Origin: Ilyonectria destructans | Lineage: Eukaryota; Ascomycota; Sordariomycetes; Hypocreales; Nectriaceae | Direction of reading: 5' to 3' | Length of the DNA: 64,000 nt | Assembly: GCA_020740775.1 (NCBI GenBank) | Contig: JAHEWK010000002.1 | Span: 3,162,001-3,226,000, forward strand | Shown: positions 28,900 to 35,844 of the stretch, in pieces | Layout of the letters: each line of letters opens with the position of its first letter | Numbering within the stretch: position 1 is the stretch's first letter | Translations under genes and position numbers: made by a program | Notes under the pieces: generated by a model | What the model saw: only the letters and a program-made list of their open reading frames with translations | The model's database searches: none | Told to the model about the DNA's origin: nothing

Positions 28900-31396
28900 T
28901 TAATTGTTGAGGAAGCCCATCGCCTTCCAGCTGGATACGTACTTTCGGGCTACCGCAGCAGCAACAGGACCCTCAGCGGCCAGTGTCCTAGAGTGCTTCC
29001 GAGAGTTTGCCGTGTCCAGAATCAAGCCACCGCAAGACATTCGTTCGAAGTTATGGTCAAGGAAATCAATGAGTCTAGCGGCTGGGTTTTCCGTTTCTGC
29101 CAGGAGTGGTGAATGTCGAACCATCCGGACCCATTTGCGGAAAGGTATCACGCGGTCCGACGGGATGCCGAGGGCATCGGCTAGGACTCGAGACATCTCT
29201 GTCCAGGACTGGCCGACAGGGTTGTCAATGTGATAGACAGGATAAGACTCCGGGGCATTCTCATCCCCGATACGTAGTAAGTCAACCATGGTTCCAGCTA
29301 CGTGGTTGACGGGAACCCATTGCAGCACGCCGTCAAAGTCGGGCCACATACGGAGCGCCTTGGCCGACTTGACCAAGAAAGCAAAGTGCTCGACAGGGTT
29401 CCAGAAGCCGCTTACGCTTGATCCGGCAATCTGGCCTGGGCGGATGACCATGGCACGGAAGCGCTCCGGATACTTGTGCAGCGTCTGGTCCAACATGCGC
29501 TCGCATATCCACTTGGCTTCACAGTAGCCGATGGGCAGCACGGAAGCCATGGGAACCCTTTCTTCGCGTATGCGAGGCCCGGTAGCATGGCCTACGACAC
29601 CGATTGACGAAATCAACTGGAAGCTGATGCGGGGGCCCCGGTTGGCACAAGCCATGTCTCGTGCGAGGTCCAACAAGTTGCGGAGAGATTGGAACTGAGG
29701 CTCGAAGGCGCGGACCGAACGTGTCCCGCTCATGGGCCAAGCGTTGTGCACAATGTGTGTGCCGTGATGCACTAGCCAAGTGTATTCGGACTCGGGCAGG
29801 CCTAGTCTTGGCTTGGAGCTGTCTGCCTCGAGGATGCGCAGCTTGGACAGCTCATCGGACGAGAGCTGGATGCCCCGGGTCGAGAAGGCCTCCATCTGCC
29901 GCCGTTCAACAGGCATGCTGCTTCGCCGGTTGACGCAAACAACTGTTCCCACGGCGGACTGGCTGGCGAGGCTGGCAGCTAAGTGCGAGCCCAGGCTGCC
30001 CGTGGCGCCCGTTAGAACGACGACAGCCTTCCTTTCGACTTGATGCACCGGGGCCGTGCCGGCGTTGAGGGCGGGCGAGAGTGCCGAGACTCCGGGGACT
30101 CCTGGGAGTGCAAACCCGGCCGTGTACTTGGCAACGAATGTCTCGGCTTCCTTCTCCCGGGCTGCTACTTGCTCGGGAGACTGCCTTGTATCCATCTCGT
30201 CGGCCTCGACGCTTGCCTTTGGCAGTCGCCCCTGCTTTGGCCCCGAGGCCAGGGCGATGATGACTTTCTGGAAGGCATTTTCAGCCAAATTACCATCAGT
30301 CCAGTCCACGTGGCCAAACCCGGCGGCGTGCAAGTCGCGCTCCCAGTCCTCGGCGGTGATGATGGCATGTTTGCGCCAGTCGTCGAAAAGCCACCAGCCC
30401 TCGAGAAGACCGAAGATAAGGTCGACAAAGGCCACGGGCTCCGTCATCTCCAGCATCATGAGGAAGCCATCAGGACGCAGGGCGCTGCGGAGATTGCTAG
30501 TCGAGTTGACGAGGTTGTGTGTGGCATGAACGGCGTTGCTGCCGATGATGATGTGCTGATGCTTCAAGGCTTCGGCTAGCGGCCTCTCGATGTCGTGGAC
30601 GGCGAAGCGCATAAACGAATACAGCTTGCCGAACTTTCGCCTGGCGTTGGCCACCATGGACCCCGATATGTCTGTGAAGGTGTATTCGATGGGGATGTCC
30701 AGCGTGGCAAGGTAAGGCGCCAGCACATAGGTAGTGCCTCCTGTTCCGGCGCCCACCTCGAGTATCTTGAGCGTCTCGCCACGCTGGCGGCCCTGGATTC
30801 GGATCACCAGCCGTTCGATAACCAGTCGCATTTGGCCGTAGTTCATGCGGTTGAAGGTGTGCTCACAATACAATGCCTGCACCAGCTCGCGACCTTGGGT
30901 GGATCCGAATATGACTCTGAGACCGTCCGTCTTGCCGCTGAGGACCCCGGCCAGATGCTTGCCGGCATAGTAGGTCAACTTGTTGGCCACAACGAAGTTT
31001 GGGTACGTGGCCAACAGTTCCTGCAAGATTGCTTCGCTCGGCTTGCGCGGCGCCGCCATATTGGTGCGTGAGACTTGCCCACTCACCGGGTCCACGTCTA
31101 TCAAGCGAGCCTCGTCCTCGAGGAACCTGTAGATGAACTCCATCAGCCTCCCATGTTGCGGTTGGAACTGTACCCGCTCAAGCACCTGTCCCGCTGTGGC
31201 AGAGCGTAGGGGACAGCCTAGTTCCTCCAAGACATCGACGACAAGCGCGACGCAGAGGCGGTTGGATGCGGCGAGCACCACGCGATCGATATTGTCAATT
31301 TGATGTTCGACGAGATGTTGGTCGCAAAGCAGCTTGACTTCCGCAAAGCTCTCAAGGATTTCAGACTGAAAGAGCTCCAGGTTACTGAGGACCGGG

Positions 31397-31454
<58 letters not shown>

Positions 31455-34400: not shown

Positions 34401-35844
34401 AGATGTCTGCAAGAGTGACGTCAGGGAGAGATTGCAGACAAGAAAGCAACTTGGCGCAGTACGCAGCGATTCCTTGGGCACCGTGGGCCGAAAGGCGGAA
34501 TGGAAAGTTGAAGTTGTCCGAATGAGTAGATGCTGGCCAGCTTCTACAGTTGGGGGGGGGCTGTGTTATCACCATGGAGGCGTTGGATCCACTAGCGCCG
34601 TAGTTGTTGATGAGGGCCACCTTGAACTCGTCGTCCCATGTTCTCAACGACGTGACGACTTCCAACATGTCCGACGGGGCCACCTTGATGTGATGGCTCA
34701 TCTTGGAGAAGCTGGCCTGCGGAGGAATATAACCACCCCACATCATCATGATGGTCTTGATGAGGGAGATGACACCAGATGCACCTTCTGCATGGCCAAT
34801 ATGACCCTTGACTGAGCCAATAGGCAGGGGCTTGCTCCGGACTGGTCCGCCAAGTGCCAGACGAATACTTTCATACTCGGCTGGATCGCCGACGGGTGTG
34901 CCCGTGCCGTGGGCCTCGACCAACGAGACATCTCCGGGACTCAGTTTGGCCCTCTCAACCACGTCCTTGAACAGTTGAGACAAGGATGGCGAGTTCGGGA
35001 CAAAGAGGGGGGTGCAGTTTTGGTTCTGATATACAGCCGTGCTGGCGATGCAGCCGAGGATGGGGTTTCCGTCGGCAATGGCATCTGACATCTTCTTGAG
35101 GAAGACGCAGGCAATGCCTTCGGCACGGCAGTAGCCATCTGCCGACTCATCAAACGGCTTACACTGGCCGGTAGGGCTGAGAAAGCTTGCGCCAGCCAGG
35201 TTCTGAAACCAGAGGAAGTTTGTTATGGTGGAAACGCCTCCCGCAAGGGCTGCGGTGCATTCTCCCGAGAGAAGATTGCGACATGCTGTATGGATGGCAA
35301 CGGCGGACGCTGAGCAGGCTGTATCGAACGTCATGGACGGTCCGGTCCATCCGAAGTAGTGCGAGACCTTTCCTGGAATGAAGCTCTTGAGATTGCCCGT
35401 GGCTGTGAAGGCGTTGGGGACGTGGCACGCCGCGTGGTGTTCGTAGTCACCGGCACATGCTCCCATGTAGACTCCTATATGGTTCTTATCACGGTCTTTG
35501 GTGCTGGTAGTCGTCTCGGAAAAATACCCCGACTGATCAACCGCCTGGTACGCAGCCTGCAAGAAGAGGCGCTGTTGCGGGTCCATGGTCGTTGACTCTC
35601 TGGGGCTGCGCTTGAAAAACTTGTGGTCAAAGGCATCGGCGTCTCGGATGAAGTTGCCATACCAGTTGCGCGACGGATCCTTGTCCTCCTCGCGGAAGAG
35701 AGTGTCAAACATCAGCCGTTCTGGCCCGATCAACTCGTGCTGCGACTCTCCTGTGCGCAGCATCTGCGAGAATTCGTCGAGGTCGTCGGCCCCGGCAACT
35801 TTGATAGACATGCCCACCACCGCGATGGAATCTTCATTCTCCAT
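28900..35844 (-). CDS. non-reducing PKS without SAT: KS-AT-PT-ACP-CMeT-R
   Basis: One uninterrupted exon encodes 2,314 residues. KS starts at residue 5 (DSIAVVGMSIK), with Cys177 in FDTACSASA and EAHGTGTPVGDP. AT carries GHSFGE (Ser about 625). The product-template domain has His about 966 in SGHLIAQTAPICP and Asp about 1153 in LSDSFSQ. There is one ACP (VGIDSLMGMEL, Ser about 1337), then an acidic/Ser/Thr-rich linker with a Thr-Ala repeat. A C-methyltransferase follows (LEVGAGTGG, about 1698), then a thioester-reductase domain (TGATGSLG about 1945; catalytic YCEAK, Tyr about 2107). Reductive release would give an aldehyde, as in asperfuranone- or sorbicillin-type NR-PKSs. Those enzymes normally begin with about 350 residues of SAT; here nothing precedes KS and no SAT-like frame lies upstream. 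Chain loading must therefore differ, or the enzyme self-primes. Confidence 0.94.
31397..31468 (+). repeat. (GTTGCC)n hexanucleotide repeat inside the NR-PKS
   Basis: Nine perfect GTTGCC units are followed by GTTGTC, GTTGCC and GTTCCC. On the coding (minus) strand they encode alternating Thr-Ala in the linker between ACP and the C-methyltransferase. Length changes by units keep the frame. Confidence 0.95.

What the first reader, a model, noticed from the sequence alone, without database searches (positions are those of the whole stretch)
28900..35844. NR-PKS paired with an HR-PKS but lacking the SAT starter-loading domain
The protein begins five residues before the KS motif. All other domains (AT, PT, ACP, CMeT, R) are present with their catalytic residues. 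In known HR/NR-PKS pairs the SAT domain receives the HR-PKS chain. Only 848 bp separate this start from the next gene, too little for a SAT of about 350 residues, and no separate SAT gene is visible. Either the KS is loaded directly by the HR-PKS, another protein (for example the FSH hydrolase or acyltransferase) mediates transfer, or the two PKSs work independently. This is the best candidate in the window for undescribed biochemistry.
Basis: partly seen in the sequence, partly recalled or inferred. Interest (0 to 1): 0.8.

Follow-up and report, generated by a model that had tools for sequence, protein, structure and literature searches.

The report
SAT-less azaphilone NR-PKS clade
A fungal enzyme that builds aromatic compounds has lost the front domain its relatives use to receive a starter chain from a partner enzyme, and this loss is shared by several related fungi that still keep the partner, so the pathway must start or join its two halves in another way.

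Summary
The 2,314-residue NR-PKS (28900-35844, -) is KS-AT-PT-ACP-CMeT-R with no SAT, and no SAT was found in the window. It is not a private truncation: 12 enzymes (this fungus, Dactylonectria, Verticillium albo-atrum, nine Fusarium) begin at the KS, keep the tested catalytic residues and form one clade. Their nearest relatives carry a CazM-like SAT with an intact Cys, so the SAT was most simply lost once, from an enzyme that had a working one. HR-PKSs and O-acyltransferases (OAT) from the same or sister species form matching clades. The cluster has the five azaphilone core gene types. My preferred reading: the NR-PKS primes itself (malonyl/acetyl) and the OAT puts the HR-PKS chain on the azaphilone core, as proposed for azanigerone; that makes a SAT dispensable. 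Handover of the HR chain to the NR-PKS without a SAT is not excluded, and nothing in the sequence decides it. SAT absence was listed in 2022 for a Verticillium nubilum relative, and SAT-less NR-PKSs work in mushrooms, but in the held papers I found no report of a functional ascomycete one nor of this clade. New variant of a known kind; interesting because testable.

The parts
28900..35844 (-). SAT-less non-reducing PKS, KS-AT-PT-ACP-CMeT-R, 2,314 aa, one open frame
34555..35832 (-). KS domain (residues 5-430), Cys177, His312, His351 intact
33361..34233 (-). malonyl acyltransferase domain (residues 538-828), Ser625, His740 intact
32092..33021 (-). product-template domain (residues 942-1251), His966, Asp1153
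31726..31923 (-). ACP (residues 1308-1373), Ser1337
30316..31341 (-). C-methyltransferase (residues 1502-1843); its catalytic residues were not tested
   Evidence: PDB relative 5mpt, citrinin PKS
28909..30015 (-). reductive release domain (residues 1944-2312), Tyr2107, Lys2111
35845..36692 (-). 848 bp 5' flank where a SAT-coding exon would be expected; no SAT found
36693..38238 (-). FAD-dependent monooxygenase, with introns (start read by eye)
11884..20047 (+). highly reducing PKS, six exons, 2,616 aa, ends in ACP with no release domain (KS-AT-DH-MT-ER-KR-ACP)
9583..11019 (+). O-acyltransferase, TRI-like/Transferase family, 478 aa, HxxxD motif at 176-180
1..467 (+). 3' part of serine hydrolase FSH1 (5' part is left of the window, L009:9619-9999)
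26718..28773 (+). Zn2Cys6 transcription factor (ends read by eye)
22150..22884 (-). aldo/keto reductase; a 5' exon towards 23201 is possible but matched no Pfam family
38607..39505 (+). short-chain dehydrogenase
7249..9275 (-). beta-lactamase-like hydrolase (second half below Pfam cut-off); probable signal peptide read by eye
2569..3435 (-). old-yellow-enzyme type oxidoreductase (further exons upstream unassigned); cluster membership unsure

Best explanation
This is an azaphilone-type cluster in which the NR-PKS lost its SAT domain in an ancestor that had a CazM-like SAT, and now primes itself: the AT loads malonyl (decarboxylated at the KS) or the KS takes acetyl directly. It extends, C-methylates, cyclises through the PT domain and releases an aromatic aldehyde through the R domain. 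The FAD monooxygenase makes the azaphilone core. The HR-PKS makes a separate reduced acyl chain and the O-acyltransferase takes it from the HR-PKS ACP and esterifies the core. Shown: SAT absence, its conservation in a clade, intact tested catalytic residues, matching HR-PKS and OAT clades, azaphilone gene types. Inferred: self-priming, the acceptor of the HR chain, the product.
For: The 12 SAT-less rows form one clade: SH-aLRT 95 on KS-AT, quick tree of 65 rows; 8 of the 12 put into a full-length tree of 26 rows, 100/100. Nine HR-PKSs from I. destructans, V. albo-atrum and Fusarium form one clade (97); eleven OATs do too (100/99; one of the eleven is an unnamed metagenome protein). For 27 NR/HR pairs judged to share a contig, distances correlate, r = 0.70, reached by 0 of 5000 permutations; only the window's pair among them belongs to the SAT-less clade. 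The five azaphilone core gene types of PMC8596599 are present by Pfam. The OAT keeps HxxxD in 79 of 79 aligned rows, so an acceptor for the HR chain other than a SAT exists. PMC8596599 (passages): deleting the HR-PKS AzaB leaves azanigerone E, and the OAT AzaD is proposed to use the HR chain; CazF feeds both NR-PKS and OAT. Naturally SAT-less mushroom NR-PKSs are active, with malonyl-CoA alone sufficient in vitro for one (PMC10401856).
Against: The nearest relatives' SAT is full-length and catalytic: Cys in 102 of 103 SAT-bearing rows, Ser in one. P0004's SAT matches the CazM SAT structure, the kind that receives an HR chain, so the ancestor probably did receive it. In asperfuranone and chaetoviridin, deleting the HR-PKS abolishes the products (PMC8596599). 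The KS shows no residue unique to the SAT-less clade (0 of 426 sites; control clade 1), which fits an unchanged substrate as well as or better than a switch to acetate. Removing the SAT inactivated the one ascomycete NR-PKS tested (ACAS; PMC10401856). Product unknown; no expression data.
Confidence: 0.55

Rival explanations
1. The HR-PKS still supplies the starter, but without a SAT: its ACP hands the chain straight to the NR-PKS KS, or the OAT or hydrolase carries it to the NR-PKS.
For: NR-PKS, HR-PKS and OAT clades match through the SAT loss. The HR-PKS has no release domain. Sister SATs are CazM-like and catalytic. The KS shows no clade-specific substitution, as if its substrate had not changed. 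Capture of a starter directly by the KS is raised in PMC10401856, which also notes that HR-PKSs use unusual starters without a SAT (section 10).
Against: No example is known to me; PMC10401856 says of the SAT-less mushroom layout that it precludes mixed HR/NR pathways. The OAT gives the HR chain another acceptor. No added docking domain was seen on either PKS.
Confidence: 0.3
2. A SAT acts in trans from elsewhere in the genome, for example the free-standing SAT gene at G000:C5:573.6-574.8 kb.
For: That gene exists: two Pfam SAT match rows and no KS, AT or PT match in the 10 kb around it.
Against: Unlinked, of another SAT type (E 0.029 with this clade's SAT profile), and a trans SAT did not rescue ACAS (PMC10401856).
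Confidence: 0.05
3. The NR-PKS is inactive and the cluster is decaying.
For: A 24-kb AT-rich island abuts the cluster; ACAS without its SAT is dead.
Against: 2,314 codons open, 94% identical to the Dactylonectria protein; tested residues of KS, AT, PT, ACP and R kept in 12 of 12 (AT Ser 11 of 12, one gap).
Confidence: 0.07
4. Artefact: an upstream SAT exon or a misassembly was missed.
For: No transcript data. Six other short models are scattered in the tree, so short models do arise in this family.
Against: No SAT found in any frame of the window; nearly the same start point in 12 proteins from different genome projects.
Confidence: 0.03

Closest known systems
Azanigerone cluster (AzaA NR-PKS, AzaB HR-PKS, AzaC, AzaD OAT, AzaH FMO)
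   Same: Same five core gene types; the HR chain is proposed to be esterified to the core by the OAT, so the two PKSs work in parallel
   Different: The azaphilone NR-PKSs of that review, AzaA included, are stated to have a SAT; product here unknown; AzaA was not in my trees
Chaetoviridin CazM/CazF/CazE
   Same: The sister enzymes' SAT matches the CazM SAT (4ro5); HR-PKS and OAT present
   Different: CazM takes the CazF triketide through its SAT; here there is none
Lijiquinone cluster, LijE (P0021)
   Same: 64% identical NR-PKS, same layout from KS to R, azaphilone product
   Different: LijE has a SAT with GFCTG
[quoted passage not shown]
   Same: Same cluster type, reported as KS-AT-ACP-MT-R with SAT and PT missing, HR-PKS beside it, Dactylonectria as top hit
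   Different: 2,578 aa, and the same table shows no SAT or PT for the melanin PKS, so its SAT call is not firm; no mechanism is discussed in the parts read
Clade XII basidiomycete NR-PKSs (CoPKS1, CoPKS4, CrPKS1-3)
   Same: Naturally SAT-less and functional
   Different: TE release, no HR-PKS partner, other phylum; they were not in my trees

Membership tests
Non-reducing fungal PKS with CMeT and reductive release (group VII) | KS-AT-PT-ACP core plus CMeT and R | tested here: met
   PT below model cut-off, as also for LijE
Non-reducing fungal PKS with CMeT and reductive release (group VII) | N-terminal SAT | tested here: not met
Non-reducing fungal PKS with CMeT and reductive release (group VII) | Nests among SAT-bearing relatives, LijE and an afoE-named and a Penicillium sclerotiorum NR-PKS among them | tested here: met
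Azaphilone gene cluster | NR-PKS, HR-PKS, serine hydrolase, FAD monooxygenase, OAT together | tested here: met
   by Pfam family and not by orthology; criterion from PMC8596599
Azaphilone gene cluster | Makes an azaphilone | not testable with these tools
   no chemistry
SAT-gated HR/NR pair (CazF/CazM type) | NR-PKS SAT that accepts the HR chain | tested here: not met
   4ro5 (CazM SAT) is not among the 60 of 110 chains shown for this protein and is second for sister P0004
SAT-gated HR/NR pair (CazF/CazM type) | Co-inherited HR-PKS without release domain | tested here: met
   linkage of HR-PKS with a SAT-less NR-PKS seen directly only in the window
Clade XII SAT-less basidiomycete NR-PKS | TE release | tested here: not met
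   R domain instead of TE
Clade XII SAT-less basidiomycete NR-PKS | Position in a tree with clade XII | not tested
   no clade XII sequence was in the trees

The most novel reading that the evidence does not exclude
An ascomycete NR-PKS lineage takes the HR-PKS chain straight onto its KS or ACP with no SAT, having dropped the gatekeeper domain while keeping partner and substrate; this would be a hand-over between fungal PKSs that the literature read here calls precluded.
Probability: 0.27. Interest if true: 0.85.

Novelty: new variant of a known kind. Interest (0 to 1): 0.55.

Why it matters
PMC10401856 says that no biochemically characterised active SAT-less NR-PKS was known from ascomycetes, that removing the SAT kills an ascomycete enzyme, and that the SAT-less layout of mushrooms precludes HR/NR cooperation. 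Here is an ascomycete clade, 12 enzymes in my sample, that lacks the SAT and keeps the HR-PKS. Either it self-primes and the pair works in parallel, or the chain passes without a SAT. Both outcomes would change how fungal PKS clusters are read and give a compact natural enzyme for learning what a SAT is needed for.

Tried and rejected
An apparent in-frame stop at 19220-19222 in the HR-PKS was checked and lies in an ordinary GT-AG intron, so the gene is intact. Search for KS changes unique to the SAT-less clade (at least 11 of 12 rows, at most 1 of 28 SAT-bearing neighbours): none in KS; 24 over the whole protein against 38 for a control clade, so no sign of adaptation; ACP differences 3 against 4. 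The KS-AT model (900 residues, 41-row alignment, mean pLDDT 83, pTM 0.85) is a complete KS-AT fold, closest by E-value to CurL and CTB1; it says nothing about loading. Six further short models (P0036, P0045, P0091, P0096, P0101, P0114) fall outside the clade or unresolved; if they too are counted as SAT-less the tree needs 6 changes instead of 1. I treated them as probable partial models (one is named 'partial' by its source) but did not verify that; P0101 is unresolved. Linkage of the NR-PKS to the HR-PKS and OAT in Verticillium albo-atrum and Fusarium could not be shown: in V. albo-atrum and Fusarium sp. DS 682 the HR-PKS and OAT share a contig and the NR-PKS is on another. The lijiquinone paper is not held.

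Full report
What is there. The window lies on a 5,981,941-base contig of a 71.7-Mb genome. The window's HR-PKS is identical over 743 compared columns to an Ilyonectria destructans protein whose contig has the same length, so the source is very probably I. destructans. The reported ORF is real. Domains, by Pfam and NCBIfam, are KS, AT, PT, ACP, CMeT and R; there is no SAT. In the PDB comparison residues 6-898 align to residues 383-1275 of CTB1 (6fij), that is to the part after its SAT. The 848 bp up to the next gene hold no long open minus-strand frame.

SAT absence was tested in three ways: Pfam on the protein; Pfam SAT over the genome, 13 match rows, none in the window; and a SAT profile built from 103 relatives, run without filters over six frames of the window, best E = 13, with nothing either in 15 kb to the left. 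That profile is tuned to this SAT type: of the genome's five SAT-KS loci it found one strongly, two at E below 1e-3, one weakly, and missed one. The genome has six loci with PT matches at E below 1e-20, two of them (the window's and the one on C74) below the model's cut-off. Five of the six have a Pfam SAT upstream followed by a KS; the window's alone lacks it. The other SAT match rows are a free-standing SAT gene on C5, one in a reducing PKS (C12:2464364) and two (C23:3432006, C6:614502) that I take to be fatty acid synthase genes from their sequence (these labels are my reading, from no family search).

It is a clade, not a private truncation. The protein search listed 120 relatives of 1,759 found; with the window protein, 103 of 121 have more than 380 residues before the KS and 18 have fewer. 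Twelve of the 18 (window; Dactylonectria macrodidyma, 94% identical; Verticillium albo-atrum, 70%; nine Fusarium, several close to each other) start 6 to 19 residues before the KS. On KS-AT columns, 65 of the 121 rows, these twelve form one clade (SH-aLRT 95, quick method). On columns from the KS to the end, 26 rows with 8 of the twelve, the clade has 100/100. The other six short models fall elsewhere or unresolved; counted as SAT-less they raise the changes needed from 1 to 6. I take them for partial models but did not verify this. Ten tested residues of KS, AT, PT, ACP and R are kept in all twelve, save one gap at the AT Ser; the CMeT was not tested.

What was lost. All 103 SAT-bearing relatives keep a nucleophile: Cys in 102, Ser in one. 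The SAT of relative P0004 (Hypoxylon) matches the CazM SAT crystal structure over residues 4-401 (E 1.6e-122). CazM's SAT receives a triketide from its HR-PKS (PMC8596599, passages). So the loss happened in a line whose SAT was probably an active receiver of an HR chain. That is against a trivial reading in which a dead domain was shed.

The partners stayed. The window HR-PKS is intact after splicing (2,616 aa), KS-AT-DH-MT-ER-KR-ACP with no release domain. Nine HR-PKSs form a clade (97, 46 rows): two records of I. destructans (the window's and the public one), one of V. albo-atrum and six of Fusarium; four of the six Fusarium ones are from species whose own NR-PKS is not named in my list. Eleven OATs form a clade (100/99, 41 rows): window, D. 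macrodidyma, V. albo-atrum, seven Fusarium and one unnamed metagenome protein. Seiridium (three different species in the three sets), whose NR-PKS has a SAT, is sister in the HR-PKS (98) and OAT (100/100) trees, weakly so in the longer NR-PKS tree (73/98) and unresolved in the KS-AT tree. For 27 NR/HR pairs (the window's and 26 of about 44 that I matched by eye through equal contig length), distances correlate with r = 0.70 and 0 of 5000 permutations reach it. Only the window's pair among these belongs to the SAT-less clade, so this speaks for the family's pairing in general, and relatedness inflates such tests. It is not shown for V. albo-atrum or Fusarium; in V. albo-atrum and Fusarium sp. 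DS 682 the NR-PKS sits on another contig than HR-PKS and OAT.

How it may work. The cluster holds NR-PKS, HR-PKS, FSH1 serine hydrolase, FAD monooxygenase and OAT, the five core gene types of azaphilone clusters in PMC8596599. Precedents there bracket the question. In azanigerone, deleting the HR-PKS leaves the azaphilone core and the HR chain is proposed to go to the OAT. In chaetoviridin one HR-PKS feeds both the NR-PKS, through the SAT, and the OAT, and deleting it abolishes everything; in asperfuranone too both PKSs are needed. The simplest history is a shift from the second kind to the first: the NR-PKS began to prime itself and the SAT became dispensable. I give this 0.55. The rival, that the chain still goes to the NR-PKS without a SAT, gets 0.30, because the pair is kept, the relatives' SAT is catalytic, and the KS carries no substitution unique to the clade (0 of 426 sites, control clade 1; 24 over the protein against 38 in the control clade). 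An absence of KS change is weak evidence.

What is known. PMC10401856 (outline with abstract, and sections 3, 9, 10) reports functional SAT-less NR-PKSs in basidiomycetes, no biochemically characterised active one yet from ascomycetes, an ascomycete enzyme killed by SAT removal and not rescued by a SAT in trans, and says the SAT-less layout precludes mixed HR/NR pathways. PMC11149221 (passages) cites a skyrin NR-PKS proposed to lack a SAT in Cyanodermella asteris (an ascomycete, recalled). PMC9495618 (passages, sections 15 and 21, first part of section 35) lists SAT and PT as missing from a V. nubilum relative in a lijiquinone-like cluster with an HR-PKS. Its table also shows no SAT or PT for the melanin PKS, and PMC8582187 (passages) warns that SAT domains are sometimes missed by domain-calling tools. 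Passages of PMC7898651, PMC12470490, PMC3475676, PMC8307326 and PMC5635595 gave background only; PMC10142127 held none of the terms. In nine paper searches I found no description of this clade as SAT-less or of a mechanism; subscription papers are mostly not held.

Verdict. New variant of a known kind, interest 0.55.

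Noticed in passing
L011:3630-4790 (G000:C5:573,630-574,790): A free-standing SAT gene with introns and a stop after the SAT; no KS, AT or PT match in the 10 kb around it. Neighbours read like an AMP-ligase, a transcription factor and an old-yellow-enzyme (by eye). Its motif reads ASCAG rather than GxCxG.
   Followed up: partly
window 40001-64000: AT-rich island (21-31% GC against 44-58% in the gene part) with no stop-free frame over 166 aa listed, next to the cluster; looks like a block of mutated repeats (my reading).
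   Followed up: no
L015 / L008 (G000:C74:86-96 kb): A second NR-PKS in the same genome whose SAT and KS match this family's profiles strongly, directly behind a gene with R-domain matches and an AMP-ligase-like part (by eye).
   Followed up: partly
window 12344-12409: The HR-PKS model needs a GC-AG intron (GCAAGT donor).
   Followed up: yes
L009:6836-9244: To the left of the window an FkbM-type methyltransferase and a short-chain dehydrogenase may extend the cluster; PMC9495618 lists an O-methyltransferase in the matching Dactylonectria and V. nubilum clusters.
   Followed up: partly
P0006, P0123, P0243 (named Verticillium albo-atrum): PMC9495618 found this cluster only in V. nubilum although it screened a V. 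albo-atrum genome, while the protein search gives all three genes from a record named V. albo-atrum: strain difference or a misnamed record.
   Followed up: no
trio across Ilyonectria/Dactylonectria/Fusarium, Verticillium and Seiridium: The species spread over what I recall as three fungal orders hints at horizontal transfer of the whole trio.
   Followed up: no
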